Shown here in pieces: positions 5,421 through 31,933 of a stretch of DNA of 64,000 nt (its first letter is position 1; the number at the start of each line of letters is the position of its first letter). The notes beneath the pieces were generated by a model. The model was not told the origin of the DNA. It did no database searches and saw only the letters and a program-made list of their open reading frames with translations. Made by a program: the position numbers and the translations under genes. The stretch is from Myxococcota bacterium. Lineage in GTDB: Bacteria; Myxococcota; XYA12-FULL-58-9; JALHOP01. Location: the NCBI GenBank assembly GCA_022842935.1, contig JALHOP010000009.1, positions 1 through 64,000 of the forward strand, read 5' to 3'.

Positions 5421-7216
5421 GCTCGCGCGACCTCGTCTTCTTCGTCCCAGTTGGGCTGTAGTAGCGTCTTGCTGCTCATGAATTGACGCACGAGCTCGAC
5501 GACTTCTTCCCGCTTGGCGCAAGCCAGCGTTTCGGACAAGAGCGCGTCACACTCGCTCTTGGCGAGCTCGAGCACCAACCTCTTCACCTTGGGGATCGAC
5601 GTCGCGTTCATGCTGAGCTGATCGAACCCCAGCCCCAGCAGTAGTGCCGTGTTCTCGAGGTCTCCCGCCATTTCGCCGCACACTGAGGTGTGAATGTGGG
5701 CGGCGCGGGCCGCGTCGGCGATGGTACGCAGTGTACGCAGTACCGACGGGTGAAGAGGATGATTGAGGTAGTCGACTCGTTCGTTGGTGCGGTCGGCAGC
5801 GAGCAAGAACTGGAGAAGGTCGTTGGTTCCGACAGCGAAGAAGTCCACGTGTTTTGCGAGGTGGTCAGCGATGAATACCGCGCTCGGCACTTCGATCATG
5901 ATGCCCACTGGTACGTCGGTCTTGTGCGGCACGCCGTCGCGCGTAAGACGGGCAGACACCTGCGAGATGACCTCGCGAGCGTCCTCTACCTCTTCGACAG
6001 CGGCGACCATCGGCAACATGACCCGCACGTCGCCATGCATGGCGGCCCGCAAGACGCCGGCAATCTGGGGCTCGAAAATCTCCGGATGTCGTAGGCAATA
6101 GCGGATTGCTCGCAAACCCAAGGCCGGGTTGGCTTCGAGCTCGAGCGGCGCCATGCCCTGGAAGATCTTATCGCCACCAAGGTCGAACGTACGGATCGTC
6201 ACCTGCCGGTCGCCAACCTCGGCGAGCACCTTGCGGTAGGTCTGATAGTGGTCCTCTTCGCTGGGGGGCTCGCGTCGACCCAAAAACATGAACTCGGTGC
6301 GGTAGAGTCCGATCGCTTCGCCGCCACGACTGATGACGGTGGCAACCTCCACGGGAAGCTCGATGTTGCCGGCGACGCGGATGGAGTGTCCGTCCGTCGT
6401 CTGCGCTGGCAAAGCCTGGGCTTCGAGGAGCTCCAGCGTCATGCGGTCGAAGATGACGCGTCGCCGATCGCTGCGTTCGACTTGAATCTTCGTGGGCCGC
6501 AACAAGACCTGCCCGTCGAGACCGTCGATGATGATCTGGTCGCCGGAGCCGGCCGCGTCGACTATGCCATGAGCGCCGACCACCGCGGGAATCTCGAGCG
6601 CGCGTGCGATGATCGAGCTGTGCGAGGTCTTGCCACCAACCTCGGTGACGAACGCCTTGACCTTGTGCTGCGATAGCACCGCCGTGTCGACCGGCGAGAG
6701 ATCGTGCGCGACCAAGACCACCCCTTCCGCGTGCGCAGGTACCTCGGCGATGTCGTTCATTTGCCCGACGAGATTGCGTAGGATGCGCTCGCCAGCGAAC
6801 TCGACGTCCCCCTTGCGTTCGCGGAAGTACGGGTCAGCGACGCTGTCGAAGAGGCTGCGGATGCGGGCGATGACCTGCGACACTGCCCACTCGGCGTTGA
6901 CCAACTCGTCGCGGATCGTCCTAGAGGCCTCCGTAAACAGTGAACGGTCGCGCAGCATCATCTCGTGGGCTTCGAGGATCGCCTTGTGGTCCATTGCTGA
7001 ACCCGCGAACGACGTACGCACCGCCTCGAGCTGCGCCACCGAGGCGGTGATGGCGGACTCGAGCCTCGCGATCTCGGCCTCGACGTCTTTGGCTTCGATA
7101 TGATGACGGCGGAAGCGAACGCTGCGTCTGTCGAGGAGCACGACGCGGCCAATGGCAATGCCCGCCGAGGTGCCGATGCCGCGAAAAATCCGCGGTCGAC
7201 CGCTGCCCGGCGGCAT
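5417..7216 (-). CDS. ptsI: PTS enzyme I (phosphoenolpyruvate-protein phosphotransferase)
   Basis: Transfers phosphate from PEP to HPr in the cytoplasm. Family signatures are complete: phospho-His199 in GGKTSHSSIIAR, the PEP-site segment DFFAVGTNDLLQF and the C-terminal SVCGEMAGD cysteine. About 599 aa from ATG 7216, near the usual 575. GTG 7225 is equally possible because it makes a 4-bp GTGA overlap with the HPr stop. Last gene of the ptsN-hprK-rapZ-EIIA-HPr-ptsI unit. No sugar EIIB or EIIC is nearby, so it most likely drives a regulatory phosphorelay rather than sugar import. Confidence 0.95.
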   Translation of the reverse strand: MPPGSGRPRIFRGIGTSAGIAIGRVVLLDRRSVRFRRHHIEAKDVEAEIARLESAITASVAQLEAVRTSFAGSAMDHKAILEAHEMMLRDRSLFTEASRTIRDELVNAEWAVSQVIARIRSLFDSVADPYFRERKGDVEFAGERILRNLVGQMNDIAEVPAHAEGVVLVAHDLSPVDTAVLSQHKVKAFVTEVGGKTSHSSIIARALEIPAVVGAHGIVDAAGSGDQIIIDGLDGQVLLRPTKIQVERSDRRRVIFDRMTLELLEAQALPAQTTDGHSIRVAGNIELPVEVATVISRGGEAIGLYRTEFMFLGRREPPSEEDHYQTYRKVLAEVGDRQVTIRTFDLGGDKIFQGMAPLELEANPALGLRAIRYCLRHPEIFEPQIAGVLRAAMHGDVRVMLPMVAAVEEVEDAREVISQVSARLTRDGVPHKTDVPVGIMIEVPSAVFIADHLAKHVDFFAVGTNDLLQFLLAADRTNERVDYLNHPLHPSVLRTLRTIADAARAAHIHTSVCGEMAGDLENTALLLGLGFDQLSMNATSIPKVKRLVLELAKSECDALLSETLACAKREEVVELVRQFMSSKTLLQPNWDEEDEVARA

Positions 7217-7221
7217 CACCT

Positions 7222-7503
7222 TCACGACTCGAAGCCCCGATCGATTAAGGCGCAAAGCGCTTCGACGGCGCGCTCAGCATCGCTCCCCTCGGCTTCGACG
7301 GTCAACGCGGTGCCACGGCCCGCAGCCAGCGCGAGGACACTCATGATGCTCTTGGCGTTAGCGCGTTGGCCACCAGCACCATCGCGCTCGAGGGTGATCT
7401 CGCAGGCAAAGCCACCAGCCATTTGAACCAAGACGCCAGCGGCGCGAAGATGCAGCCCCAGGTCGTTGGAAACCCGTACGCTACGGCGGATGCGCGCGCT
7501 CAC
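7222..7503 (-). CDS. HPr-like phosphocarrier
   Basis: 93 aa. Phospho-His18 lies in GLHLRAAG. The histidine and the following arginine of the canonical GLHARPA are kept, but the Pro is Ala. The serine site of HPr kinase is present (Ser52 in NAKSIMSVLAL), and hprK lies three genes upstream. It relays phosphate from EI to the two EIIA proteins encoded in the same operon. GTG start overlaps the EIIA stop (GTGA, 7500-7503). The spacing between the two phospho-sites is three residues longer than in the textbook protein. Either name, HPr or NPr, would fit. Confidence 0.9.
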   Translation of the reverse strand: MSARIRRSVRVSNDLGLHLRAAGVLVQMAGGFACEITLERDGAGGQRANAKSIMSVLALAAGRGTALTVEAEGSDAERAVEALCALIDRGFES

Positions 7504-7922
7504 GATGCACTCTCCTTCACGGCGCTACCCAGCACCTCGCTGGCGACGGCGATTGATCGCAGACCGGCTTCCTTCACCTGTCGAGCCGCTGTCGCGAGGT
7601 CCACGTCTTTGACGCTCAGCTGCAGGGCCTTGATCGCCATGGGAAGGTTGGCTCCCGTCAAGACTTCGACGACGCCAACCCTGTGGAGCGTGAGACCTAC
7701 GTTCGAAGGGGTGCCGCCGAACATGTCGGTGAGGATCAAAACGCCCCGGGCGCCTTGGACCGCAGTGACGGCTTCGCGCAGACGTGTCTCGTACGTTTGC
7801 GTTGTATCGTCCTCATTTATCTCGACAGCGACGAAGCGCGTCGCGTCTGCGACGACGCCTCTGGCGGTCGCCAGCAGCGATTCCGCGAGGCGGCTATGCG
7901 TTGCGATGACCACACCAATCAC
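7500..7922 (-). CDS. PTS EIIA component, mannose family
   Basis: About 140 aa. The GTG start at 7922 overlaps the rapZ stop (GTGA) and has AAGGAG six bases upstream. The open frame continues upstream but is only a rapZ shadow. Phospho-acceptor His9 sits in VVIATHSRLAESLL, and DMFGGTPSNVGL is the family signature. No IIB, IIC or IID partner is encoded here, so this is probably a signalling EIIA receiving phosphate from HPr, as in other proteobacterial regulatory PTS clusters. Cytoplasmic. Confidence 0.9.
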   Translation of the reverse strand: MIGVVIATHSRLAESLLATARGVVADATRFVAVEINEDDTTQTYETRLREAVTAVQGARGVLILTDMFGGTPSNVGLTLHRVGVVEVLTGANLPMAIKALQLSVKDVDLATAARQVKEAGLRSIAVASEVLGSAVKESAS

Positions 7923-8830
7923 GACGACTCCTTGGTGGCTTTCACGACGCTTTCGCGCGGTCGGGCAAGCCGCGCGGCGTTGTGTACATCTCGGTGGCGC
8001 AAGTCGACATTGAGTCCGAGCTCGCGCAGTTTGTCTGCTATCGCGGAAGACACGACGACGGAACGGTGCTGGCCGCCGGTGCAACCAATGGCCAAGGTTA
8101 GGTAGCGCTTGCCCTCGCTCTGGAAACGCGGCGTCAGAAATTTCAAGAAGGCCATCGCCTGGTCGATGAAGGCTGCTGTCTCGGTACTGTCCATAACGTT
8201 CTTCACCACCGCGTCGTCGAGACCGGTGAGCTCGCGCAGGCCGGGGACGAAAAATGGGTTCGCGAGGAAGCGCACATCGAAGACCATGTCGGCGTCGAGA
8301 GGGAGGCCGTGCTTGAAGCCGAAGCTCAAGACAGCGACGCGCAGCGTGTCGCGCATACTGACGCCGGCGATCTGCTCGATCACACGGGCCTTGAGCTCAT
8401 GGGGCGACATGGCGGAGGTGTCCAGCGTGTCGTCGGCGATCTCGCGCAGAGGCACCAGGAGCTCGCGCTCGCGCTCGATAGCGTCGCGCAAGCCACCGCC
8501 GCTATCCAACGGATGTTTGCGGCGCGTCTCGGAGTAGCGGCGCAACAGCGCCTCCTCACGGGCTTCGAAGTAGACGACCCGGACCGTGTGGATCGAGCGT
8601 AGGGTCTCGACCAGCGCAGGTGCGCCTCGTAGCGAGGCAGGATTGCGCGCATCCATGACAAGCACCACACGCGCCGTCGTCGGGTCGTCGGGGAGGGTGC
8701 GGACCAGCTCCGAGACCAAAGACGTCGGCAGGTTGTCGACGCAGTAGAAGCCCTGGTCTTCGAGGACGCGCACCGCGGTGGACTTGCCCGACCCGGATTG
8801 CCCGGTGAGGATGACGATCTGGCGCTTCAT
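7919..8830 (-). CDS. rapZ: RNase adapter / nucleotide-binding protein RapZ
   Basis: 303 aa from ATG 8830, which overlaps the hprK stop (ATGA). N-terminal P-loop GQSGSGKS (10-17), a Walker-B-like VVLVMDARN, and the C-terminal family signature GCTGGQHRS. In Escherichia coli RapZ controls glucosamine-6-phosphate synthase through small RNAs, and its Bacillus homologue YvcJ binds nucleotides. Placement between hprK and the EIIA gene is the common proteobacterial arrangement. The role in this organism is inferred only. Confidence 0.94.
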   Translation of the reverse strand: MKRQIVILTGQSGSGKSTAVRVLEDQGFYCVDNLPTSLVSELVRTLPDDPTTARVVLVMDARNPASLRGAPALVETLRSIHTVRVVYFEAREEALLRRYSETRRKHPLDSGGGLRDAIERERELLVPLREIADDTLDTSAMSPHELKARVIEQIAGVSMRDTLRVAVLSFGFKHGLPLDADMVFDVRFLANPFFVPGLRELTGLDDAVVKNVMDSTETAAFIDQAMAFLKFLTPRFQSEGKRYLTLAIGCTGGQHRSVVVSSAIADKLRELGLNVDLRHRDVHNAARLARPRESVVKATKESS

Positions 8831-9771
8831 TCGCTCTCCACGGTGCCGCGCATGAGACGCTTCTCGAGAGCTTCTTTGAAGTTCACAGCGGCGTTGTGGC
8901 CGCGCAGTTTGAGGAGCTGGTTGCGCGCAGCGACCTCGACGATGGAGGCCACGTTGCGACCGGGGCGAATCGGCAAGCGCACCTTCGCGACACCGACCTC
9001 GAGGATTGTCTCGTAGAGCTCGTCGACACCCAAGCGGTCGTACTGATCGTCGTTGCGCCACTCGGCCATCTCGACCACAAGCTCGACGCGCTTGCGATCA
9101 CGGACCGATGCGGCTCCAAAGAGGTCTGCGGCGTTGATGATGCCGAGGCCCCGCACTTCCATGTGGTGCTTGGTGATCTGCGGCGAGAATCCCTCGAGAT
9201 AACCTGACCGGCGCTTCACCTGAATGACGTCGTCGGCCACCAAACGGTGGCCACGCAAGACCAGGTCCAGCGCGCACTCGCTCTTGCCGACCCCGGAAGG
9301 CCCGGTCAGCAGGACGCCGACACCGAAGACGTCGAGCAATACGCCGTGCATCGAAACTTCGGGCGATAGGTGCTCGTCGAGGAACTGGTGGACGCGGCTC
9401 GTGAAGATATGAGTGACGAGCGGTGTCCGAAATAGCGGCAGCTCGAGTCGTTCGCACAGCGCAATGAGCTCCGCCTGCGGCACGAGTGCGCTCGTCACCA
9501 CCAAGCAGGGAATATTGACGCTTCCCAAATAGTCGACTGCGTCGCGCCGGGCGTCGCCTTCGAGGCTCGCGAGGTAGGAAATCTCGGTGGCACCGACGAC
9601 CTGCATGCGACCAGGCTGCAACGACGCGGTAAAGCCGGTGAGCGCAAGGCCAGGGCGCTGCGTGCGTACGTGATCAATCTCGCGGCGAAGGCCCGCGGCG
9701 CCGGCCACGAGCTCCAGCTCGAGCTTGAAGTCGGTATCGTCGCGAAGCGCTTTGGCGAGAACGGTGTTCAA
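8827..9771 (-). CDS. hprK: HPr kinase/phosphorylase
   Basis: 314 aa, full length. Phosphorylates and dephosphorylates the regulatory serine of HPr. Walker A is GPSGVGKS (157-164), the conserved His142 lies in MHGVLLDVFGVG, and the family-specific MEVRGLGIINAADLFG follows. TTG start at 9771 overlaps the ptsN stop (TTGA). The matching HPr serine (Ser52) is present in the same operon, so the control loop is closed within the window. Confidence 0.94.
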   Translation of the reverse strand: MNTVLAKALRDDTDFKLELELVAGAAGLRREIDHVRTQRPGLALTGFTASLQPGRMQVVGATEISYLASLEGDARRDAVDYLGSVNIPCLVVTSALVPQAELIALCERLELPLFRTPLVTHIFTSRVHQFLDEHLSPEVSMHGVLLDVFGVGVLLTGPSGVGKSECALDLVLRGHRLVADDVIQVKRRSGYLEGFSPQITKHHMEVRGLGIINAADLFGAASVRDRKRVELVVEMAEWRNDDQYDRLGVDELYETILEVGVAKVRLPIRPGRNVASIVEVAARNQLLKLRGHNAAVNFKEALEKRLMRGTVESE

Positions 9772-10238
9772 CAGCGCGCATCCTCATCAAGAAAGGCCCG
9801 GAACAACGGTGCCTGGCCGCCGGCGCGCTGGAGACCTTCTCGGAAGGCGGGGTTCTTCAGAAGGCGCGAGATGCGGGCCAACGCTTTCAGGTGAACCCCA
9901 GCAGAGTTTTCGGGGACGAGGAGCGCGACCACCAGGGTGACAGGTTGCTGATCGATGGCATCGAACGGGATCCCACGCACGCTACGTCCGAACGCCGCAG
10001 TGAGCCGCACGAGACCAGGCACCTTGGCGTGCGGTATAGCGACGCCCTCGCCGACGCCGGTGGAGCCGAGGCGCTCGCGGTCGAGGAGCGCACGCAACAC
10101 GCGCTCTTCGGCGTCGCTCATGCCGGGGGCGACCGCGCAGAGGTGGTGCGCCATTTCGCGGAGCACCCCCTCCTTGTCGCTCGCCTTGAGGTCCGGGAGG
10201 ATCATCTCCTCGGACAGGAACTCACTGATTCGCAACAT
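9768..10238 (-). CDS. ptsN: PTS EIIA-Ntr (nitrogen-regulatory phosphoacceptor)
   Basis: 156 aa from ATG 10238, chosen because the family begins at MLRISEFLSEE. Phospho-His70 lies in GVAIPHAKVPGL. The final acceptor of the Ntr-type PTS; homologues tune potassium transport, nitrogen metabolism and stress responses by protein contacts. It heads the six-gene overlapping PTS unit. In many proteobacteria it follows rpoN and hpf; here a 4.3-kb gene lies between rpoN and ptsN and no hpf is seen. Confidence 0.93.
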   Translation of the reverse strand: MLRISEFLSEEMILPDLKASDKEGVLREMAHHLCAVAPGMSDAEERVLRALLDRERLGSTGVGEGVAIPHAKVPGLVRLTAAFGRSVRGIPFDAIDQQPVTLVVALLVPENSAGVHLKALARISRLLKNPAFREGLQRAGGQAPLFRAFLDEDARC

Positions 10239-10346
10239 CGCGATGCCAAGCCTCGCCGCGCCCAGCCGCTCACGGAGGCGCTGGCGTCGCTTGTAGCACG
10301 GGCTCCAACGCGGCGGCACCCCCTGCGCGCCCGGGGGTGAAAGCGT

Positions 10347-13300
10347 CTACCCGCCGAGTCCCTGAATGTGGATGTGGTTGTCGTGGGCGCCGAAGGCCCG
10401 CACGCCGCGCACGTTGATGTGGGGGTCGTTGAAGAGAATGTCCGCGTTCGGGTTGAGGCTTCTAAACAGCCTTAGGATGATCCGAGTCGATTCACGATCG
10501 TAGTTTGGGCTGCGATAGGTTGCCTCATCGGAGCCGCGTTGCGGGTGCGCCGTTGTCCGGCCGTCGCTGAAAGCCAAATCGAGGTCGATGTTGATGCCTC
10601 GCTCGTGGGAGCTGTGCCCAGGGATATCGCCGCCGCCGTACTTGGACAGATCGCCCACTCGCAGCTTCATGCCGGTCTGACGGTAGTAGAGCTCCGCGAC
10701 CATTTGAATCATCGCGACCGTTCGCGCCGTGCCATAACGGAAGGGGTTGGCGGTGCCCTCGCCGTGCGAATGGGGTCGGTAGACCATGTGGTAGGGCCCC
10801 TCGAGCGGCAACTCGGTCTCGACTCTGGTGTTGTTCAGGCGCCGGAGTTGCGCGCGCAACGCCGCGAAGTCGACGCCCTCTATTGAACCCGGGGGCACCC
10901 GGACTGCTTCGCGGGGCTGGGCCGTGGGTGCACCCTCTAGCTCGGCAGGCACGGCCGGCCGCTCGCGGGGTCGCGCCCTGGGCCGCACCGTCGGGGTGCC
11001 GTCGAGAATTGTACGCAGCTGGGAGCCAGCCGGCAGCGCGGCGCGCGTCGCTTCAAGGATGCGGCGCCCTTCGGCATCGTTGCGAGCGCGCAGGGCCGCC
11101 GCGACTGTACGCTGAGCCTCGGCCTCGACGCGGGCGGCGACCTCTGGGGAGCTGATCGTTTCGCCTGCGCCTTGCATGAGGTCGCGCATCGTCGGCTGCG
11201 GACGGCCGTCGGGGCCCGTGTGAGGCAGGTTGAAGGCGAACGCGACGTTGGCGGCGAGATCGTCGGGCTTGGCCCGCTGGAGCTGCTCCATCCGAAGATG
11301 GAGAGCCGCAAATCGCGTCTCCGGAGTCGCTCCGGAGAGGTCGGCGCGCAGGAGCGCCGCAGTGAGCTCGGCGTGTTGATGATCCGGCAGGTTCGGACGC
11401 GTGTCGCCGCGCTCGTCGGTTGGAACATGCGACTGGCTGTACACGGTCGCGACGTCAATGAGCCCGCGGTCGACACCAGCCCGAATAGCGCGCGCTGTCG
11501 GCGTATCGCCGGCGGTGAGCAAGGCGAGGCGTCGCTGACGCTCAGTGGCCGCGTCCGCAGACTCGCCCGCCCTGGGCGTCAGCTCGCGGGTAAGCGCTCC
11601 GACCAGTTCATCGGCGTCGGCGGCTCCGTTCGGACCCGCTGCGCGCCATTGCTCGATACGCTGTCCGAGCGCCGTGGCGGACTCGGGGCGCAGGCCCTGC
11701 AGGCTTGCGCGCGCCACCTCGTCGATGGCTACCGGAGCCGCACTGAGACGGCCCTCGAGATCCGCGCGCACGGCCGGGTCGAGCCGCGGCAGCTGGTCAC
11801 CGAGCGGGGCGAGTGCGGCTCGCAGAGCCGCTTGGTAGGCCTCGAGTTGGCGGCGGCCCCCGAGGCTCGGCACCTCGGTCGCGCGAATCCTTTCGATCTC
11901 GGCGTTGCGCAAGCGTGCTCGCTCGTCGTCGTTCATTGCGGCGGCGACGCGGTCGTCGTAGCTGCCGTCAGCTCGCGGCGTGCTGAGCAAGCGCACGCGC
12001 TCCGCTATCGCGGCAGCCTGGTCGGGATCTTGGAGGTCGAGAGGTTGTGACTCGGCCTGTTGGGCACGAAGCGCGGCTGCCCGTACGGTCGCTGCCGCAG
12101 CCATGGTGTGGCGATCGGTGCTGTTTTCAAAGCCGCGCGCCATCGCCGCGTCGATTGCGCGCAACGCCTCGGGCGGGAGGCTCCTTAGCGCCGGATTTTC
12201 AGCGCCTGGGGTTGCGGTGCCGAGACCGATCGACATGCCAAGCGCGGCGAGCTGGCCCTCGTCATAGCGACTCTCGCCGGGGGCGACAGCTTGACCCTCG
12301 CCTGCCGGGCGAATGCCTTCCCAAAGACGCGCTGCATCCGTCGGATTCAGGGTCGCGAGCGCGTCGCGGGTAAACGCGTGACGTCGCGATAGTGGACCCT
12401 GGCGGATCATCGCGGCAAGGCGATCGATGGCGTGTCGACGATCTTCGCCGGCTGGGCCACCGAGCTGATCGAGCTTGTCGAGCTCGGCCGCAAGGTCAGG
12501 ATTGGGCGTCGTGGCGTTGCCCGCGCGCGGGTAGCCACGTCGAGCCGCAGCGATGGCTGCGTCGGTGACGTCGCCACCGTCGGCGAGCGTCTTGAGTCGC
12601 GTGAAACGACCCGCCAGCTCGCCCTCGGGCGGGGTGACGTTGCCCAGGGCGGCAGCAACCGCCGCGTTCGCCGTTCGGCCGACTTGGGGCTCGAGCTTCG
12701 CGAGCAAATCGCTTTGCAGCTGTGCGCGAACCTCGGGGGGAAGCGCTGTGTGCGCGGGGTCTTCGGGGTTGCGCTCCTGCAACAACAAATTGCGCGAGCG
12801 ATCGGGCCCGAAAGCGAACGCCGCGTCTTGCGCTAGCCGCTCACGCCCCGCGTCGGTCGAAAGGTCGTAGCTCTCGCCGGCGCGCGCACGCATGAGCGCA
12901 GCGCGAGCGGTCGCCGCCGCGCCCGCGTTGTCGGGCGTCTGCGCGAGCGTACCCGCTAGGTAGCGGTCGAGATCGCCGAGGACCTCGGGAGACATACCGT
13001 CGAGCGTCGAATTGGGCGCGCCAACGCGGGCGCGATCTTCGGCAACGCTTGCGCGGAGGGCATCGGCGACGCGTGTGACTTCGCGCTGATACGCCGCCTG
13101 ATCGCCTCCCGCACGCAGGCGCGTGAGGTCGGCTGCGGTGGGAACGCCCGCTGGCGGCTGCGCGACCGGGAGGCCTGGCGGCGCCGCGATGATGGTGCCG
13201 GGCAATCCTTGGAGCGCCGGAGGCGGCTCGGCTGGTGCATCGGCCGCAACGCCCCCCAAAAGGCCAGCGCGTAAGCGAATGCGTGCAAGCTGCTCGGCGG

Positions 13301-14654
13301 TCTCTCGAGGCAGGCCGTCGGGCGTCACGCCATTCAATACCTCATCGATCTGCTGCTTGAAGGCGCGTCGCGTTGGCTCGTCAGCGCCCTCGGGCGGCCG
13401 TACCGCGTCGAGACGTTGAAGGACCTGCGACTGCAAGGCCGCGCGGGCCTCTGGACTCAGGCGCGCGGCGATGCGCCCGTCGGGGTCGGTCGGGTTTGCG
13501 GCGTTCGCGAACGCAAAACGCGCATCTGCAGCCAGCGCGGTGCGCTGACCCGGGTCGCCCAAGTCGGGCGCGTCGGTGCCGCCGCGGCGAACCAGCTGAG
13601 CGCGGATGGTTGCCGCCGCGTCGAGATCGCCATCGAGCTCGGCGGCCGGCGTGTCGGTCGCGGCATTTGCAACGCGATCGCGGAGCGCACCATACATGCC
13701 CCGGAGCGCGTTGTCGGGTAGCGCGTCGATGTGCTCGTGCGTCCCTCCCACGACCCCGTCGCCAGACGCCGGATGGGTGAGGGCACGTGCCATCGCCAGG
13801 TGTTGCGCGTCGGTAAGACGGCCGGTCGCATCAGGCCGCGGTTGTCCCCGCTCATCACGCGGCGCCAGCCGCTCGTACAGTGCCGCAGCATCATCGCGGT
13901 CCAAGCTGCCGAGCAAATTGGCGGCAAATGCAGGGCGCGTGGCTTCTGGGTGCTGTTGCACCGCATCGACAAGTCCATCCCGTCCGCGTCGGCGCGCTTC
14001 GTCGGGGAGGCTTGAAAGTCTGCGTAGGGCCGCCGCTTGAGCGTCGGTCGGGGGGCCCGCATCACGCTCACGGTCTGCCTGGCTTAGCTCACGTGCAGCC
14101 GAGAGCACCGGTTGCTCGGGACGCGCATTGGCCGCGATGTCGTCTGGGCTCGCGGGCGCCGGCCGCGTTGGCGCGCGCGCCGCAGGAATATTGCCGATTG
14201 GGTTGGTGACATTCGGTTGGGCGTGGACACGTTGAAAGCGGTCGACGACCTGGCGGCTTGGCGCGACGTCGGAGGCCAGCGCGTCTGCCAGCCCGGTGAG
14301 GGTAGGAGCGGCGGCGCGGCCACCACCAATGTCGGACGCATCGCGCACACGCGCGTCGGCGCGCAGCGCGGCCTGAACGTCCATGAGCGCCTGTTCGGTG
14401 TGACGACCGAATTTGTCGTCAACTTCGAGCTTGGCGCTGCCCGTGTACAGGTTGATAGCGCGCTGGAGCGCTGCCACCTGTCCCGGCGGCGCTGTCCGAT
14501 CGCGTCGAAGCGACCGCTCGAGAGAGCTCGCGATCGCCCGGAGCTCATCGGCTGCGGCTCTGCGCGCACTGGGGTCTTGGAGCCGCTGCTCGAATTCTGC
14601 GTCAACGTTTCTAGTGGCCGCCCGCGGGCGCGCGGCTGGAGCTGCGCCTGTCAT
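10347..14654 (-). CDS. 1435-aa four-module protein with C-terminal LAS-type murein endopeptidase domain
   Basis: Architecture read directly: a short peptidoglycan-binding-like region at about 54-100 (AINLYTG...FGRHTEQALMDVQ). Four diverged Ala/Arg/Asp-rich modules follow, whose most conserved segment starts near 364, 597, 873 and 1131 (DLxDPxxRxxLAxDAxFAF, then LxPExRAxLQSxLL in the first two). A linker precedes a domain at about 1284-1432 like penicillin-insensitive murein endopeptidase (MepA, M74; LAS metallopeptidases): GDLSKYGGGDIPGHSSH, zinc-type H1350-x6-D1357 and H1427-x-H1429. No signal peptide or membrane segment is visible. It lies between rpoN and ptsN. The endopeptidase call for the last 150 residues is good; the modules are unrecognised. 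Confidence 0.8.
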   Translation of the reverse strand: MTGAAPAARPRAATRNVDAEFEQRLQDPSARRAAADELRAIASSLERSLRRDRTAPPGQVAALQRAINLYTGSAKLEVDDKFGRHTEQALMDVQAALRADARVRDASDIGGGRAAAPTLTGLADALASDVAPSRQVVDRFQRVHAQPNVTNPIGNIPAARAPTRPAPASPDDIAANARPEQPVLSAARELSQADRERDAGPPTDAQAAALRRLSSLPDEARRRGRDGLVDAVQQHPEATRPAFAANLLGSLDRDDAAALYERLAPRDERGQPRPDATGRLTDAQHLAMARALTHPASGDGVVGGTHEHIDALPDNALRGMYGALRDRVANAATDTPAAELDGDLDAAATIRAQLVRRGGTDAPDLGDPGQRTALAADARFAFANAANPTDPDGRIAARLSPEARAALQSQVLQRLDAVRPPEGADEPTRRAFKQQIDEVLNGVTPDGLPRETAEQLARIRLRAGLLGGVAADAPAEPPPALQGLPGTIIAAPPGLPVAQPPAGVPTAADLTRLRAGGDQAAYQREVTRVADALRASVAEDRARVGAPNSTLDGMSPEVLGDLDRYLAGTLAQTPDNAGAAATARAALMRARAGESYDLSTDAGRERLAQDAAFAFGPDRSRNLLLQERNPEDPAHTALPPEVRAQLQSDLLAKLEPQVGRTANAAVAAALGNVTPPEGELAGRFTRLKTLADGGDVTDAAIAAARRGYPRAGNATTPNPDLAAELDKLDQLGGPAGEDRRHAIDRLAAMIRQGPLSRRHAFTRDALATLNPTDAARLWEGIRPAGEGQAVAPGESRYDEGQLAALGMSIGLGTATPGAENPALRSLPPEALRAIDAAMARGFENSTDRHTMAAAATVRAAALRAQQAESQPLDLQDPDQAAAIAERVRLLSTPRADGSYDDRVAAAMNDDERARLRNAEIERIRATEVPSLGGRRQLEAYQAALRAALAPLGDQLPRLDPAVRADLEGRLSAAPVAIDEVARASLQGLRPESATALGQRIEQWRAAGPNGAADADELVGALTRELTPRAGESADAATERQRRLALLTAGDTPTARAIRAGVDRGLIDVATVYSQSHVPTDERGDTRPNLPDHQHAELTAALLRADLSGATPETRFAALHLRMEQLQRAKPDDLAANVAFAFNLPHTGPDGRPQPTMRDLMQGAGETISSPEVAARVEAEAQRTVAAALRARNDAEGRRILEATRAALPAGSQLRTILDGTPTVRPRARPRERPAVPAELEGAPTAQPREAVRVPPGSIEGVDFAALRAQLRRLNNTRVETELPLEGPYHMVYRPHSHGEGTANPFRYGTARTVAMIQMVAELYYRQTGMKLRVGDLSKYGGGDIPGHSSHERGINIDLDLAFSDGRTTAHPQRGSDEATYRSPNYDRESTRIILRLFRSLNPNADILFNDPHINVRGVRAFGAHDNHIHIQGLGG

Positions 14655-14831
14655 GAATGAACTCTACCTCGAACTGACCGCGGCGCGCTGGCGGAGGGCG
14701 TGCCACGATTTCACCTTACCCCGCTGAGGGCGAACCTGGATGCAGGAAAAAACGAACAAAGACCCGATGCCGCACTGCGGCAGGTTCGAGGCGGGCGTCT
14801 ACAGCGTCTACGCGTGAAGCAGCGAACTGAC

Positions 14832-16469
14832 CTAGAACACTTGTTTGCGCTTGGACGAGGACGGAATCCTCAACATTTCCCTGTACTTCGCAACGGTGCG
14901 ACGCGCGATGTCGATGTCGCGCTTCTTGAGGAGCTCGACGATTTGTTGGTCGCTAACCGGTGACTTGGGGTTCTCGTTGTCGATGAGCTGCTTGATGAAG
15001 TCGCGAACCGACTCGGATGCAATGCTCTCACCGCCGACGCGGTTGATGGACGAGTTGAAGAAGAACTTCAGCTCGTAGATGCCCTGCGGGGTGTGAACGT
15101 ATTTGTTCGAGGTGACGCGTGAGATGGTGGACTCGTGCATGCCGACGTCTTCGGCCACGTCCTTCAAGATGAGCGGGCGTAGATGCTGCACACCTTTGTC
15201 GAAGAAGTCGCGCTGGAACTTCAGGATGCTCTCCATCACGCGGTAGATCGTGCGCTGCCGCATGTGGATGCTGCGAATCAGCCAAACGGCGCTGCGCAGC
15301 TTCTCCTGGATGAACGACTTGGTCTGGCCGCCGCTGCTTTGCAGAGCGTCACGGTAGTAGTTCGAGATCTTGAGCTTCGGCAGTCCGTCTTCGTTGAGGA
15401 CGATCTGATAGTCGTCGCCGACCTTGTGAACATAGATATCGGGCGTGATGTACTGCGGCTCTTTGACGCTGAAGATGCGGCCTGGCCGCGGCTCGAGGTG
15501 CCCGATGAGCTTGACGACGTCGCCGATCTCCTGAAGCGAGACCTTCAAGTCCTTGGCGATTGCGGCGTAGTTGCGCCGCTCGACGTTCTTCAAGTGTTTG
15601 TCGATGACTGCGTGCAATAGCGGATGATCGGCCTTGAGCTTCTCGGCTTGTATCAACAAGCACTCGCGTAGATCGCGTGCCGCCACGCCCGGGGGGTCGA
15701 ACTCGCGCAGCTCGGCAGCGACGACTTCGACGGCGTCGACACTCTGGCCGAGCTCCTCGGCGACCGTGGCGATCGCGTCGGCCGCCAGGTAGCCGTCGTC
15801 GTTGATCTCTTCGATGAGCATGACGGCAACGATGCACTCGGCCTCGGCCATCTCGCTCATCTGGACCTGCCAGCGCAGGTGATCATGGAGCGACTCGGGT
15901 TGCGACATGGTCGCTTCGAAGGGCGGCAGCTCGTCCGACGAGCCCGGTCCCGCAGTTGCGGGCAACGCGTAGGTGTTGCTCTCGAGGTATGCTTCCCAAT
16001 CGATTTCTTTCTCGACCTCGCGTGACGTTGGCTCGGGCGTGGCGTCGACTGGGCTCGATTCGACGACGCTGCTCGCGTCGATGGTGCCGCCTTCGTTGCC
16101 AGCGCTTGGCTCGACCGACGTCGACCCGTTACTCGACAACACTTCGAAGTCGGTCTGGTCGTAGTCGGCACCGTTTCCGTCGTTCGCTTCAGCGGACGGG
16201 GCTTCGAGACTATAGCTCTCGCCGCTCGCTTCGTAGTCACCCTCGGCCTCGCCCCGCGTCTCCATGGGCTCGGGCTCACTCGAGCGGTCGAGCTCGCTGC
16301 GCTCGTGCGCTTCGCCCTCCTCGAGGGTCGGGTTTTCCTCCATCTCCTTGCGGAGCACTTCGGCCATCTCGAGGTGAGACAGCTGGAGGAGCTTGATCGC
16401 TTGTTGCAGCTGGGGGGTCATCACCAGCTGCTGACTCATCTTTTGCTGCAGTCTTAGGTCGAGAGCCAT
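14832..16469 (-). CDS. rpoN: RNA polymerase sigma-54 factor
   Basis: 545 aa from ATG 16469 (MALDLRLQQ). Region I is classic (KMSQQLVMTPQLQQAIKLLQLS). A longer than usual acidic region II (about 55-160) leads to the core-binding domain and the C-terminal RpoN box ARRTVAKYRE. It directs transcription from GG/GC-type promoters and needs an AAA+ activator such as PilR, also encoded here. 153 bp separate it from the phosphoesterase gene upstream, so it may have its own promoter. Confidence 0.96.
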   Translation of the reverse strand: MALDLRLQQKMSQQLVMTPQLQQAIKLLQLSHLEMAEVLRKEMEENPTLEEGEAHERSELDRSSEPEPMETRGEAEGDYEASGESYSLEAPSAEANDGNGADYDQTDFEVLSSNGSTSVEPSAGNEGGTIDASSVVESSPVDATPEPTSREVEKEIDWEAYLESNTYALPATAGPGSSDELPPFEATMSQPESLHDHLRWQVQMSEMAEAECIVAVMLIEEINDDGYLAADAIATVAEELGQSVDAVEVVAAELREFDPPGVAARDLRECLLIQAEKLKADHPLLHAVIDKHLKNVERRNYAAIAKDLKVSLQEIGDVVKLIGHLEPRPGRIFSVKEPQYITPDIYVHKVGDDYQIVLNEDGLPKLKISNYYRDALQSSGGQTKSFIQEKLRSAVWLIRSIHMRQRTIYRVMESILKFQRDFFDKGVQHLRPLILKDVAEDVGMHESTISRVTSNKYVHTPQGIYELKFFFNSSINRVGGESIASESVRDFIKQLIDNENPKSPVSDQQIVELLKKRDIDIARRTVAKYREMLRIPSSSKRKQVF

Positions 16470-21088: not shown

Positions 21089-21154
21089 GCCCGCCTCTTA
21101 GTGCCCGTGGGGCTGAACGAGCAACCCCAGAGGCAAGCAACCCGATAATCAACA

Positions 21155-22831
21155 ATGGGGTTTGTCTTGCCTCTCAACGTCTTAGCGTTCCGATCTACCG
21201 CGCATGCGGTGTTTGCCAGCGAGATCGGGCAGGTCACCACCCCGCGGCAAGCCCACGCCACTGACGCGATAGAACGCGTTCGCACGAGTCGTGCCGACGC
21301 ACCCGCGCAGCGCGACGCTGTCTGCGCTCGCATTCTCGAGACCACCGCCGATCTCGTAAGTATCCCCAGCCAGGGCGGTATCGATGACCCACGGCCGATC
21401 TGTGAGGCGCTCATCGCGAAGCTCGCGGCGGTGGGCATTGGCGGGCGCATGCTCATGCAAGGCGCGCGCCCGGTGGGCGTCGTCGCCGAGGTCGTCGGCG
21501 AACACCCCGGCCCCACGTATTGCTTGAACGCCGTCGTCGACACCGCCCCGGTGGGCGATGCCAACAGTTGGTCCACGGTCACGCCGTTTAGCGCGGAGCT
21601 GCGAGGCAACCGCCTGGTGGGGCGCGGAGTCGGCGACAGCAAGGTCGCTGCGGCGATGTTCATCGAGGTTGGGCGGGAGCTCGCCCAGCGCACCAGCGAC
21701 ATGCATGGCCGCGCCGTCCTCTTCTTTGACGCAGCCGAGCACGCGGGCAACTTCGAGGGCATGAAAGCCTTCATCGACGCTTTCGGTACGGGGCCCGCGC
21801 GTGTGCAGGGGATGGTGATTGGCTATCCTGGCAACAAGTCGCTGCAAGTCGGCAGTCGCGGCTTTCATCGCACGCAATGGCGGATGTCACTCGAAACCCT
21901 GGGTTCGCTGAGCGAGGTCCAGGCGCTTTTGCGGTCGACTCTGGATCTGCCGCTCCCGGAAGGACGCTCGCTCGAGTTTCCACTCCCGACGAAGCGGTCG
22001 GTCACCGCAGTGCGCTGCGAGACGGGCGGACCAGCGGGGCCTGGCACCGTCGTATCGGTCGCTCTCAGCGGCAAAGCTGACCACTCCGGAGCTTCGGCGC
22101 GCTCGGGTGTCAACGCGATCGAGAAAGCCGAGCTCTTCATGCATGCGCTCGAGCTGAAGGGCCGCACCCTGTTCGGAGACGCCTTCGCGCCGGCACTCAC
22201 GCGGCTCGATGGGGGCCAGGACTTCTCGGTAATACCCGATCAGGTGCGACTCGACGTCTTCGTTCCCGAGGGCATCCCAAAGGCGAGTTGTGAGCACCTC
22301 GCCCGGCTCGCCGCAGAAACGGCCGACGAGCTGATGCCGGCGCCCGTGCGATCAGAGCTCAAGTCATCCGCTCCGGCGGACGCTGACACCCGCTTCGTGA
22401 GCGCTCTGACTCTCAACGTCGATGTTCGTACGACGGTCGTCTTCGATATCGACGCCGTTGACGCGCTCGTGCAGCAAAGAGTGGCCGCGTTGCGTGGGCG
22501 TGGTGTGCAGTGCTCGGTGGCCACCGCTGGCGCCTGGCCCGCCTACAAGCTACCAGAGGGCTCGCCGCTCTCGACCGCTATGCAGACGGCCATCAATGCC
22601 CACGCGAAGAAACCGGGGCAACCTCGCATCTCCGGACCCTCGAACGCCGGCAACGTAGCAGCGGCGTTTGGTATCCCCGCGACTGCCGGATTTGGCGTCA
22701 GTTGTAAGGCTGCTCATGCGGCCGACGAGTCGATCGACATCTCCACAATCCCCGTAGCCTACGCCGTGCACGTCGAGGCGATGGAGTCGCTTTTCAGAAT
22801 ACGCGCGCCCGCGCGTGACGCTCGAGGCTAG
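21155..22831 (+). CDS. M20-family peptidase homologue with degenerate active site
   Basis: 558 aa. Fold markers are clear: GRGVGDSKV (metal Asp kept), the dimerisation-domain segment VALSGKADHSGASARSGVNAIEKA, and a C-terminal SGPSNAGNVAAAFGIP...AAHAADE. Other catalytic positions are changed: the usual GHxDxVP is NAVVDTAPV (His lost), and the EE pair is AE (general-base Glu lost). It may be a pseudoenzyme or have another activity. It is inserted on the opposite strand between lptB and lptA. Confidence 0.75.
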   Translation: MGFVLPLNVLAFRSTAHAVFASEIGQVTTPRQAHATDAIERVRTSRADAPAQRDAVCARILETTADLVSIPSQGGIDDPRPICEALIAKLAAVGIGGRMLMQGARPVGVVAEVVGEHPGPTYCLNAVVDTAPVGDANSWSTVTPFSAELRGNRLVGRGVGDSKVAAAMFIEVGRELAQRTSDMHGRAVLFFDAAEHAGNFEGMKAFIDAFGTGPARVQGMVIGYPGNKSLQVGSRGFHRTQWRMSLETLGSLSEVQALLRSTLDLPLPEGRSLEFPLPTKRSVTAVRCETGGPAGPGTVVSVALSGKADHSGASARSGVNAIEKAELFMHALELKGRTLFGDAFAPALTRLDGGQDFSVIPDQVRLDVFVPEGIPKASCEHLARLAAETADELMPAPVRSELKSSAPADADTRFVSALTLNVDVRTTVVFDIDAVDALVQQRVAALRGRGVQCSVATAGAWPAYKLPEGSPLSTAMQTAINAHAKKPGQPRISGPSNAGNVAAAFGIPATAGFGVSCKAAHAADESIDISTIPVAYAVHVEAMESLFRIRAPARDARG

Positions 22832-28510: not shown

Positions 28511-31500
28511 ATGACTGGACTGGGCCGCGTCGGCTCCGTAGACACCGTGGCGCCGAAACCCGAAGTCCGCGATGGCGGTGTCGTGTTGGCGCGCGTCGAG
28601 CCTGAGCGCGATACTCCGACCGATGCTCTCCCTGGTCGTGCGGCTCCTGGCGCTGTGCGACGTGCTCCCACCGCCGAGCCCGCCCCACCGGGCGAGCGCC
28701 GTGGCCGCCAGGACGCGACACTTCCTCCCGCCGTCATGCAGGCCATGCGCGAGCAGCTGGGCGTCGACTTCACGCGTTTGCCACCTGCGGAGCTTGCCCG
28801 TCTTACCGCAGCTTACAGTGACTTCGTTCGCAACGACACTGGACGTCGCGATGTCCCGGCGTTCTTGCAGACAGTTGGCCGGGCCATGGTCCTCGATCGC
28901 CGCCGCGTCGTCGGCGAAATGGTTGCTAACCCCGCCGAGCATCTGGCTCGCTTGGCGCCCGCACTCGAGCGGCAAGCCGGACTCATGCGCGTCGTGCAAT
29001 CGGCCGATTTCGTCGGGCGGCTGGGCGACCTGGCTTATCGCCAGATGCGCGACAGGATGTTCCTCAGCAGGAACGCACAGGCAGCGCGTGACATGACGCG
29101 CGAGAGCATCAACACACCCGACGGGTGGCGCGCGTTCGTGCGGCTCTACGGTCAAAGTGTGGGGCCTTCCGAGATGATGCGCTTGGGTCGCCTCGCGGGG
29201 CGTGAAGGGCGCGACCAGAACGTCGTGGCTGACTTCATGCGCGCCATGGAAACGCTCCATCAGCCCGGACCCAATGGCTCGACCACACTCCTCGCGGCGA
29301 CTCCGAAGCAGATTGGCGACGCCGCCACCGCGAGCCTCGTGGCGCTGGGGCGTGAGCATCCTGGCTTGCAAGCGTTTTCGCCCGAGCAGGTGCGGCAGAT
29401 TGCCGACGCGTTGCGCGTCCCGGGCGTACAACACCGTTTCGCGATGAGCGGCGAGCCGATGCGCCTCGTCGATGACCTCACCTTGACGAGGGGCCAAGGG
29501 CCCGACCCGAGCGCCTCCTATGACGCGGCGGTCCGCGCGCGACTGAACGAAAGCTCGATTCTGCGTCGCGACCCGGCCATGGCGCACATGCCGCTCGGCG
29601 GCGGTCCCATGGAACAGGTCTCTCCTCTCACGGTGTTTCGCGAGGGCGCGACGGCGACGCTCGGCGGGATCGACGCCGCCACCGTCAAGCTGCGCGACAA
29701 CACCATGACCGCGGGCGATCTGTTGCCACTCGCCTATCAGCTCCAGGAGCATCTGGTTGGTCAGTTGTTCAATGACGGCAACCTGCGGCAAGGCGTCGTT
29801 GCCGCCGTGACGGATCTGACGGGCGAGATCCGACGCGCGGAGCAGGCGGCGTCGACCGAGCGACGCGCGCGCGCTGGCGCTGCCGTCGTAGGCGTGGTCG
29901 CTGGAGTCGGGCTGCTCGCATCTGGTCCGCTCGGCTGGGGTGTCGGCCTCACCTCGACCCTTGCGACTGGCGCTGGCGCGGCGGCGGTCACCACCATGGC
30001 CCTCGACGTAAACGCGTACCGCGACCGCCTGCGCGCGGGGGGCCTCAATGCTGCGGGCCTCGTGCTCACGAACCTCGAGAGCGAGAGCGCGGGGGGGCTC
30101 GCGGCGAGCCTCGTGCTCAATACGGCCGGAACGCTAGGCGGCATTGCGCCAGTTTTGGCCGCCCAGCGACTCCAGTACGCCCGTGGGCTCATCACCGCGA
30201 TGCGTACCGAGGGCGACACGGCCCGCACCGCAGCCGTCACGAGCTTCCTCGAGCGCAACAACGTCTTCACGGCCAGCGAGTGGCAAGCGCTCAGCCCCGA
30301 GCGCCAGGCGACTGCGCTTCGCCTCGTCGAGCGCTTCGGCTCCGAGATCGACAAAGGCGGCATGCGCGCCATCTTGCAGTTCGGAGCACGTGACGCTGAG
30401 GTCACGAACGGTCCGGGCGCGGTCGCGAACGTCGATCACATGTACGCCGCCTACAACGAGATGAACGTCGCCGAGGTCGTCGCGCGTGGCCGCCCGCTCA
30501 CCGAGCGCGAGCGCACCATCAACGCGATCGCCACCGTCGGTACCGACGCGCAGGGTAAGTTCGGTCACGCGGCGCTCGACATCATCCCCACGCTCGCGCC
30601 AGGGGGTGTCGCGCGCACGAGTCCAGAGTACCTGCGGGCCGTGCGTGAGCGTGCCGTCCGCGAGGCCTTCGCGGGCGCCGACCAGGCGACAACCGCCGAC
30701 CCCCGGGCGCTCGCCGGGTGGCGCGATCGCTATTTGCGCGAGGTTGTCGTCGAGGCGGACGCGACCCGGCGCAACCAGGCGCTCGCGCGTATCATCGGAG
30801 ACTTGCAGCGCGATCCGCGGTCCGCCGCGTGGATCAACCGTCAATTCAACCAGACCGACTACGCCATCCGCATGCAGGGGTTCGTCGAAGGGGCGTTCGT
30901 TCACAACGTCGTCGACCCCGGTCGCATCTTCAGTATGGGGCGCCTCGCCGGCTTGAGCGAAGCCGACGCCGCCGAAGCCGCCTATCGCGCGACGATGCAT
31001 GGTTTCGGGAACGCTTTCGTCGCTACCGCCTACCCGGGGATGCCCCAATTCGCGGCCGTCGTGCGTCCCGGAACGAACGTACCGCTTTTCAGTGCAGCGC
31101 AACTTCGCAGCCTCGATCGCGTCGGCCGCGCCTCTCTCCACTACAACCAGGAGCTGCAGCCGACCGCTGCCCAGGCCGCCCGGTGGGGCATCGCGACTGA
31201 CCCACCACCGCGGGGCGTACGCCAGGTGTACACGGCGGCGCTGCGCGCCAATGGCGGCCGCTTGCCCGACGGTCTGCAAGATTGGCTCGTCGAGCAGAGC
31301 GCGGCGTTTCGTGCCGCGCGGCGTGAGGCTGGTATCGGCGCGGGCGCCACCAACGCCGACAACCTCGGCAACTACGTGCCCGAGGGCATGCGCAAGTGGG
31401 CCGGCATCTTCTCGGCGAACGACTTCACGCCGGCGGCGCAGCGCACGATTGGCGACCAGGTCGAGCGTCTCTTGGGCGGCGTCAACGGCTACAGTATCGA

Positions 31501-31933
31501 GGAGTTCTCGGTCGGCAACATCGTTCGCTTCGACGCGAACTTCGCAGGCGCTGCCGCCCGCCTGGGCCTTACGCGCTCGCCGAGCTCGGCGACCTACACG
31601 TGGATCATGCGTCGGGGCCCCGACGGCGCCTTCGACGTCGTCCAGGGAGCCCACCCCGGCGCGGTCCATAGCGCGGCGGAGGCGATCCGCGCTCGCTTCG
31701 CGGGGCTCCGCGGGAGTGACGTCGAGGTCCTGCGGACCTTCTACAACCGCCCGCAAGCCGGTGACTTGCAATCGGCGCTCGCGGTCATCGCCGAGGGCAA
31801 CCTGCCGCCAGCGTTCAACGTCGCCGCGGCCTTGCGCACCGCGCGTCTCGACCGCAGCGTTAGCGTCATCACCCAGCTTCTCTTGTACCAGCAAGCGGTC
31901 GCTCAGGGCGTGCGTCCGTTCGACGGTCGGTGA
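28511..31933 (+). CDS. Large hypothetical protein (1140 aa)
   Basis: No family recognised. ATG 28511 is preferred; upstream in-frame ATGs (28406, 28451) give an Arg-rich extension of uncertain value. N-terminal about 60 residues are Pro/Arg-rich and disordered. Predicted helical body follows. A glycine/alanine-rich hydrophobic stretch at about 455-500 (GAAVVGVVAGVGLLASG...) could insert in a membrane. The C-terminal half is Ala/Arg-rich with aromatic clusters (MRKWAGIFSANDFTP, NGYSIEEFSVGNIVRFDANF). No signal peptide. Followed 15 bp later by a LuxR-type regulator. Style is like the 1435- and 422-aa proteins, but no shared domain was proven. Confidence 0.65.
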   Translation: MTGLGRVGSVDTVAPKPEVRDGGVVLARVEPERDTPTDALPGRAAPGAVRRAPTAEPAPPGERRGRQDATLPPAVMQAMREQLGVDFTRLPPAELARLTAAYSDFVRNDTGRRDVPAFLQTVGRAMVLDRRRVVGEMVANPAEHLARLAPALERQAGLMRVVQSADFVGRLGDLAYRQMRDRMFLSRNAQAARDMTRESINTPDGWRAFVRLYGQSVGPSEMMRLGRLAGREGRDQNVVADFMRAMETLHQPGPNGSTTLLAATPKQIGDAATASLVALGREHPGLQAFSPEQVRQIADALRVPGVQHRFAMSGEPMRLVDDLTLTRGQGPDPSASYDAAVRARLNESSILRRDPAMAHMPLGGGPMEQVSPLTVFREGATATLGGIDAATVKLRDNTMTAGDLLPLAYQLQEHLVGQLFNDGNLRQGVVAAVTDLTGEIRRAEQAASTERRARAGAAVVGVVAGVGLLASGPLGWGVGLTSTLATGAGAAAVTTMALDVNAYRDRLRAGGLNAAGLVLTNLESESAGGLAASLVLNTAGTLGGIAPVLAAQRLQYARGLITAMRTEGDTARTAAVTSFLERNNVFTASEWQALSPERQATALRLVERFGSEIDKGGMRAILQFGARDAEVTNGPGAVANVDHMYAAYNEMNVAEVVARGRPLTERERTINAIATVGTDAQGKFGHAALDIIPTLAPGGVARTSPEYLRAVRERAVREAFAGADQATTADPRALAGWRDRYLREVVVEADATRRNQALARIIGDLQRDPRSAAWINRQFNQTDYAIRMQGFVEGAFVHNVVDPGRIFSMGRLAGLSEADAAEAAYRATMHGFGNAFVATAYPGMPQFAAVVRPGTNVPLFSAAQLRSLDRVGRASLHYNQELQPTAAQAARWGIATDPPPRGVRQVYTAALRANGGRLPDGLQDWLVEQSAAFRAARREAGIGAGATNADNLGNYVPEGMRKWAGIFSANDFTPAAQRTIGDQVERLLGGVNGYSIEEFSVGNIVRFDANFAGAAARLGLTRSPSSATYTWIMRRGPDGAFDVVQGAHPGAVHSAAEAIRARFAGLRGSDVEVLRTFYNRPQAGDLQSALAVIAEGNLPPAFNVAAALRTARLDRSVSVITQLLLYQQAVAQGVRPFDGR

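What the first reader, a model, noticed from the sequence alone, without database searches (positions are those of the whole stretch)
10347..14654. Four-module 1435-aa protein ending in a LAS/M74-type murein endopeptidase domain, without a signal peptide
The C-terminal 150 residues carry a MepA-like zinc site (H1350-x6-D1357, H1427-x-H1429). The preceding ~1100 residues are at least four diverged copies of a module about 230-275 aa long: conserved segments start near 364, 597, 873 and 1131, and a second segment type recurs near 214, 733 and 1040. A peptidoglycan hydrolase normally needs export, yet no Sec/Tat signal or membrane segment is visible. Delivery by a specialised secretion or injection route, release by lysis, or a predatory weapon are all open. 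I know of no described family with this layout.
Basis: partly seen in the sequence, partly recalled or inferred. Interest (0 to 1): 0.72.

Follow-up and report, generated by a model that had tools for sequence, protein, structure and literature searches.

The report
Wall-cutting enzyme lacking export signal
A large, lineage-specific bacterial protein ends in a zinc enzyme that should cut bacterial cell walls, has no ordinary export signal, and appears to belong to a set of wall-degrading and digestive enzymes that this probably predatory bacterium may send out through an incomplete type III secretion machine.

Summary
The 1435-aa ORF is real. Its C-terminus is a LAS/M74 domain: Pfam M74 above cut-off, zinc residues invariant in 12 relatives, AlphaFold pLDDT 82, best PDB match MepA. 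Two full repeats (201-465, 720-962) and one partial repeat (about 532-659) are significant; the claimed fourth is not. There is no signal peptide or membrane segment, and the frame closes three codons upstream of the ATG. The N-terminus and repeats were found in no other genome searched. A paralogue (670 aa) shares residues 1-456 but ends in a C39-like cysteine-peptidase domain, a swapped-warhead layout. A shorter M74 paralogue exists.

All clear PG_binding_1 proteins in the genome lack signal peptides. The genome encodes SctV, SctN, SctL, SctJ, SctI and SctRSTU but no matching T3SS secretin, T6SS or contractile sheath, resembling the Myxococcus needleless T3SS* whose lytic effectors are unknown. 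A sigma-28-like promoter (GCAAC-N15/16-CCGATA, confirmed on unseen DNA) precedes SctI and many signal-less genes, including six wall hydrolases, one being the short M74 paralogue, but not this gene. This gene and the 670-aa paralogue instead share a rare palindrome.

Best reading: an exported wall-cutting effector, most likely through the T3SS. The enzyme part is strong; the route is inferred.

The parts
10347..14654 (-). Complete 1435-aa ORF (protein A); open frame closed 3 codons upstream of the ATG
14589..14654 (-). Residues 1-22: predicted disordered, Ala/Pro/Arg/Thr-rich tail without hydrophobic stretch; candidate non-Sec export signal (inferred)
14367..14480 (-). Residues 59-96: PG_binding_1-like stretch, below Pfam cut-off
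13260..14054 (-). Residues 201-465: module 1, all-alpha, shared with the 670-aa paralogue
12678..13061 (-). Residues 532-659: partial module 2
11769..12497 (-). Residues 720-962: module 3, full length
10914..11768 (-). Residues 963-1247: unassigned; proposed fourth module not supported
10350..10913 (-). Residues 1248-1435: LAS/M74 peptidase domain; H1350, D1357, H1427, H1429 with H1347 and H1424
14768..14782 (.). Perfect palindrome TGCCGC-N3-GCGGCA 114 nt upstream of A; also 141 nt upstream of the 670-aa paralogue; no other intergenic copy in 2.33 Mb sampled; putative operator

Best explanation
Protein A is a cell-wall-cutting effector. Its C-terminal LAS/M74 zinc domain would cleave peptide cross-links in the peptidoglycan of another bacterium. 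The N-terminal part (disordered tail, PG_binding_1-like stretch, helical modules) is a shared carrier, also fused to a cysteine-peptidase-like domain in a paralogue. The protein leaves the cell without Sec, most likely through the genome's T3SS export apparatus. That apparatus seems to lack its own secretin, as in the needleless T3SS* that Myxococcus needs to lyse prey. Shown: the domain and its zinc residues, absence of a Sec/Tat-type N-terminus, repeats, domain swap in the paralogue, T3SS core genes, and a shared promoter motif linking many signal-less wall hydrolases with T3SS genes. Inferred: catalytic activity, export by the T3SS, prey as target, function of the modules, and that the organism is a predator.
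For: M74 fold and site. No signal, frame closed. Shared N-terminus with different C-terminus in the 670-aa paralogue. Short M74 paralogue, 45% identical over 186 residues of the M74 region. All PG_binding_1 proteins above or near cut-off (VanY x2, SLT x3, M74-like and others) lack hydrophobic N-termini, whereas the canonical M74/LysM protein has one. N-termini Pro/Ser/Thr/Ala/Arg-rich, p=0.0002. T3SS: SctV 852 bits vs cut-off 692, SctN/L/J/I, SctRSTU. No T6SS or sheath; no SctC above cut-off. Promoter regulon linking SctI with signal-less wall hydrolases incl. the short M74 paralogue: confirmed on 1.2 Mb unseen DNA. DUF1521 protein (domain of T3SS-secreted NopE-like proteins; PMC6506597). Myxococcus T3SS* is needed for prey lysis, effectors unknown: PMC12075869.
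Against: A itself lacks the T3SS-type promoter (score 2.6), as do the 670-aa and 759-aa relatives. A lies between rpoN and a PTS EIIA (ptsN-like) gene, not near T3SS genes. No secretion experiment. Pro-rich linkers are common in wall-binding proteins, so composition alone is weak evidence. The PG_binding_1 match is sub-threshold. No immunity gene was identified. Other routes, T4SS for one, were not tested.
Confidence: 0.5

Rival explanations
1. A is a peptidoglycan hydrolase used at home: it crosses by an unknown route or by lysis of sister cells and remodels the bacterium's own wall or releases cell contents, with no injection.
For: Housekeeping neighbourhood (rpoN, ptsN-like, hprK, rapZ); lacks the T3SS promoter; T3SS-linked wall hydrolases that assist the apparatus itself are known in other bacteria (one search lists such papers; details from own knowledge).
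Against: The same genome has a canonical M74/LysM protein with a signal-like hydrophobic N-terminus. A paralogue carries the same N-terminus on a different C-terminal domain. Some ten signal-less wall proteins with varied enzymes go beyond one remodelling role.
Confidence: 0.22
2. A is a polymorphic effector delivered by a different machine, such as a T4SS, Tad/Kil-like pilus tips or vesicles, with the shared N-terminus or modules as address label.
For: Shared N-terminus with swapped C-terminal domain; A and the paralogue share a regulatory palindrome distinct from the T3SS promoter.
Against: T4SS and Tad were not searched, so nothing here speaks for them directly. T3SS core genes are present and most signal-less wall hydrolases carry the T3SS-type promoter. 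T6SS and contractile sheaths are absent.
Confidence: 0.18
3. A is a phage-derived endolysin or tail lysin.
For: PG-binding-like plus peptidase layouts occur in lysins; weak PHROGs endolysin hits to the paralogues (18 and 20 bits).
Against: No relative of the shared N-terminus in viral contigs and none of the protein in 50,697 phage records; housekeeping neighbours; no PHROGs match to A.
Confidence: 0.04
4. The M74-like domain no longer cuts peptidoglycan and acts on another substrate or only binds.
For: Only part of the M74 profile matches (positions 32-100 of 240); low identity to MepA (about 20%).
Against: All zinc-site residues invariant across 12 relatives; Foldseek E=1.2e-7 to zinc-bound MepA.
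Confidence: 0.06

Closest known systems
MepA / peptidase family M74 (LAS superfamily), PDB 1U10
   Same: Fold, H-x6-D and H-x-H zinc motif, Pfam M74 above cut-off
   Different: MepA is a small exported protein (own knowledge); here the domain is the last 188 residues of a 1435-aa protein with no signal peptide and lineage-specific helical repeats
Myxococcaceae MAG protein on JALHOS010000075.1 (L035:3148-4245, 365 aa)
   Same: 48% identical M74 domain at the C-terminus, PG_binding_1-like repeats in front (read from sequence), no evident signal peptide
   Different: No helical modules; N-terminus unrelated to A
Needleless T3SS* of Myxococcus xanthus (PMC12075869)
   Same: T3SS export core without an own secretin; described as required for prey lysis with effectors unidentified; matches a genome rich in signal-less wall hydrolases
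   Different: No experiment here; needle, translocon and Kil/Tad genes not tested; relation of the two T3SS not tested by phylogeny
HrpL regulon of Pseudomonas syringae (PMC3879358)
   Same: One alternative sigma factor driving both T3SS genes and scattered effectors
   Different: Here a sigma-28-like box (GCAAC-N15/16-CCGATA) with a candidate sigma factor only; A itself lacks the box
Xanthomonadales T4SS effectors with PG-binding and hydrolase domains (own knowledge)
   Same: Signal-less, PG-binding plus wall-cutting domains, antibacterial
   Different: Those carry a C-terminal XVIP address domain; here the C-terminus is the enzyme

Membership tests
Peptidase M74 / LAS zinc peptidases | Profile match above curated cut-off | tested here: met
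   29.8 bits vs 25, residues 1305-1373
Peptidase M74 / LAS zinc peptidases | H-x6-D ... H-x-H zinc motif conserved | tested here: met
   H1350, D1357, H1427, H1429 invariant in 12 sequences
Peptidase M74 / LAS zinc peptidases | LAS fold | tested here: met
   AlphaFold pLDDT 82, Foldseek top five hits all MepA, E 1.2e-7 to 4.2e-7
Peptidase M74 / LAS zinc peptidases | Zinc-dependent murein endopeptidase activity | not testable with these tools
   Needs biochemistry
MepA orthologue (NCBIfam PRK09429) | Equivalog score above cut-off | tested here: not met
   30.1 bits vs 272
T3SS-exported effector | No Sec/Tat signal, disordered polar N-terminus | tested here: met
   set-level composition
T3SS-exported effector | T3SS present in the genome | tested here: met
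   SctV, SctN, SctL, SctJ, SctI, SctR, SctS, SctT, SctU
T3SS-exported effector | Shares the promoter motif of T3SS genes | tested here: not met
   A scores 2.6 for the T3SS-type promoter; its short M74 paralogue scores 15.6
T3SS-exported effector | Secretion depends on the T3SS | not testable with these tools
   Needs mutants
Polymorphic toxin-like effector family | Shared N-terminus with exchanged C-terminal domains | tested here: met
   670-aa paralogue 51.6% identical over A 1-456, then a C39-like domain (17.4 bits, below the cut-off of 24)
Polymorphic toxin-like effector family | Adjacent immunity gene | tested here: inconclusive
   Neighbours of A are rpoN and a PTS EIIA gene; no candidate identified
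T6SS or eCIS cargo | Contractile sheath genes in the genome | tested here: not met
   No VipB, no Phage_sheath_1
PG_binding_1 | Profile match above cut-off | tested here: not met
   13.6 bits vs 23

The most novel reading that the evidence does not exclude
This bacterium digests prey with a large arsenal of hydrolases (wall cutters, proteases, glycosidases, nuclease-like enzymes) that carry T3SS-type N-terminal tails instead of Sec signals and are driven by a dedicated sigma-28-like promoter, exported by a secretin-less T3SS. Protein A and its 670-aa paralogue would be a separately regulated branch of that arsenal with a new helical-repeat carrier. This would name candidates for the missing lytic effectors of the myxobacterial T3SS*.
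Probability: 0.35. Interest if true: 0.85.

Novelty: new variant of a known kind. Interest (0 to 1): 0.62.

Why it matters
Myxococcus needs its needleless T3SS* to lyse prey, but what it exports is unknown (PMC12075869). This genome offers a concrete list of candidates: signal-less wall hydrolases, several sharing a promoter with T3SS genes, plus a checkable promoter motif for finding more. Protein A adds a lineage-specific repeat carrier that has been fitted to at least two different enzymes.

Tried and rejected
Fourth module: rejected as unproven. T6SS/eCIS delivery: no sheath genes. Phage origin: no relatives. Relatives of the N-terminus/modules in 195 genomes of the phylum and in genome contigs: none beyond short PG-binding-like hits. 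Fold of the N-terminal half: all-alpha model with mean pLDDT 64, about 75-89 over most of the module; PDB matches were armadillo-like and not significant (best E 1.2e-3, TM 0.19), so no family assigned. T3SS-type promoter upstream of A: searched, absent. Sigma-70 scan around A: nothing. One alignment call failed on frame, two scripts on coding slips. A weak N-terminal hit at C21:48147 (E=0.85) lies on the strand opposite a better ORF and was dropped. The motif-to-wall-hydrolase enrichment uses genes that were partly in the hand-picked discovery set; the clean test is.
Full report
1. The observation. The ORF at 10347-14654(-) is intact, 1435 aa, ATG start. The frame is open for only three codons upstream of the ATG (1438 codons stop to stop), so a signal peptide has not been missed through a wrong start. 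No 19-residue stretch in the protein exceeds a mean hydropathy of 1.05 and residues 1-60 stay below zero.

2. The enzyme. Pfam places Peptidase_M74 at 1305-1373, 29.8 bits against a cut-off of 25. The best outside relative found is 48% identical, in a Myxococcaceae metagenome bin (L035), where the same domain follows what read as PG_binding_1 repeats in a 365-aa protein without evident signal peptide. In 12 aligned domains H1347, H1350, D1357, D1386, D1410, H1424, H1427 and H1429 are invariant. The AlphaFold model (pLDDT 82, pTM 0.83) matches MepA first to fifth in the PDB (E 1.2e-7 to 4.2e-7; the next hits are Hedgehog domains, which share the LAS-like fold by common knowledge). It is not a MepA orthologue: 30 bits against a cut-off of 272.

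3. The front part. Modules at 201-465 and 720-962 are homologous along their length (z=12.9), and 532-659 is a partial third. The fourth is not supported. Residues 59-96 resemble PG_binding_1 below cut-off. The 1-456 model is all-helical, with residues 1-22 unstructured and no significant fold match. Neither the N-terminus nor the modules were found outside this genome: not in 195 genomes of the phylum beyond short PG-binding-like hits, not in genome contigs, viral contigs or phages. Plasmid hits cover the M74 end only.

4. Paralogues. C7:153491 encodes 670 aa, 51.6% identical over residues 1-456 of A, including module 1, followed by a different C-terminus with a weak Peptidase_C39_2 match. 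C9:178198 encodes a short protein whose M74 region is 45% identical to that of A. C12:139850 encodes 759 aa with a related PG-binding N-terminus. A shared front with exchanged enzymes is the layout of polymorphic effectors.

5. The set A belongs to. Among proteins matching PG_binding_1 above or near the cut-off, none has a hydrophobic N-terminus. They include two VanY, three SLT and an M74-like protein. The one canonical M74/LysM protein does have one. Their first 30 residues are richer in S/T/P/A/R and poorer in hydrophobic residues than other non-secreted proteins (p=0.0002 each); Pro-rich linkers could contribute to this.

6. The secretion system. SctV is confirmed against FlhA (852 bits, cut-off 692; FlhA model below its cut-off). 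A C6 cluster (about 80-120 kb) holds SctN, SctL, SctJ, SctI (weak match), a FliG-like protein and a sigma-70-family factor, with SctR, SctS, SctT and SctU by homology to the flagellar set. A complete-looking flagellar cluster is separate. No secretin reaches the SctC cut-off; the two partial matches are probably PilQ and GspD (inference). There is no T6SS and no phage-type sheath. This resembles the needleless T3SS* of Myxococcus, which is needed for prey lysis and whose effectors are not identified (PMC12075869); bradymonabacteria are also proposed to prey with one (PMC11509652).

7. A promoter regulon. Comparing 31 chosen upstream regions with 501 others gave one gapped motif: GCAAC-N15/16-CCGATA, close to a sigma-28 site with a changed -35 box (own knowledge). 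In the first 1.1 Mb the spacing counts are 14 at N15 and 5 at N16 against 0-2 elsewhere. In 1.2 Mb not used to find it they are 16 and 6 against 0-3. It precedes SctI and other genes of the T3SS region. In the unseen DNA, genes behind the motif rarely have a signal-like N-terminus (4 of 40 vs 241 of 854, p=0.01) and have S/T/P/A/R-rich starts (p=1e-8). Six of eleven wall-related genes carry it, including the short M74 paralogue. Other signal-less genes with the motif encode a GH3 glycosidase, a prolyl oligopeptidase and an M24 peptidase. A DUF1521 protein has a similar but weaker and more distant upstream site; DUF1521 occurs in T3SS-secreted NopE-like proteins (PMC6506597).

8. What does not fit. 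A does not carry this motif (score 2.6), nor do the 670-aa and 759-aa relatives. A and the 670-aa paralogue share instead a perfect palindrome, TGCCGC-N3-GCGGCA, 114 and 141 nt upstream, with no other intergenic copy in 2.33 Mb. In A it could also serve as the end of rpoN transcription; in the paralogue the upstream gene is divergent, so a shared operator is the simpler reading, though common descent of two paralogues is possible.

9. Verdict. Enzyme identity: about 0.9. An exported, non-Sec effector acting on bacterial walls: about 0.65. T3SS as the route: about 0.5, because the strongest regulatory evidence is for functionally similar genes and not for A itself.

Noticed in passing
Own-genome loci, e.g. 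L092:11117, L104:1105 and 3073, L085:6412, L116:17830, L082:8676, L114:7105; window 21121-21148: Sigma-28-like promoter motif GCAAC-N15/16-CCGATA in front of SctI, other T3SS-region genes and dozens of signal-less genes; spacing peak reproduced on unseen DNA. In the window it lies 34 nt before an M20 peptidase gene (21155-22831).
   Followed up: yes
L093:2131-3015 (G000:C6 about 116-117 kb): Sigma-70-family factor (regions 2 and 4) inside the T3SS cluster; candidate driver of the motif regulon.
   Followed up: partly
L100:9935-11083: 382-aa signal-less protein with DUF1521, a domain of T3SS-secreted NopE-like proteins.
   Followed up: no
L146:6934-19410: 4158-aa signal-less protein with the T3SS-type promoter motif 97 nt upstream (score 17.8).
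   Followed up: no
window 28511-31933 (+): 1140-aa protein without Pfam match, Pro/Arg-rich signal-less start and an internal hydrophobic segment; effector- or translocator-like.
   Followed up: no
L086:5307-6827 and 6853-8334: Convergent pair of signal-less SLT transglycosylases with PG-binding domains, one with the promoter motif and one without.
   Followed up: partly
L092:8306-9328: FliG-like protein within the non-flagellar T3SS cluster.
   Followed up: no
window 9768-16469: A sits between rpoN and a PTS EIIA (ptsN-like) gene in an otherwise standard rpoN-ptsN-hprK-rapZ order.
   Followed up: no
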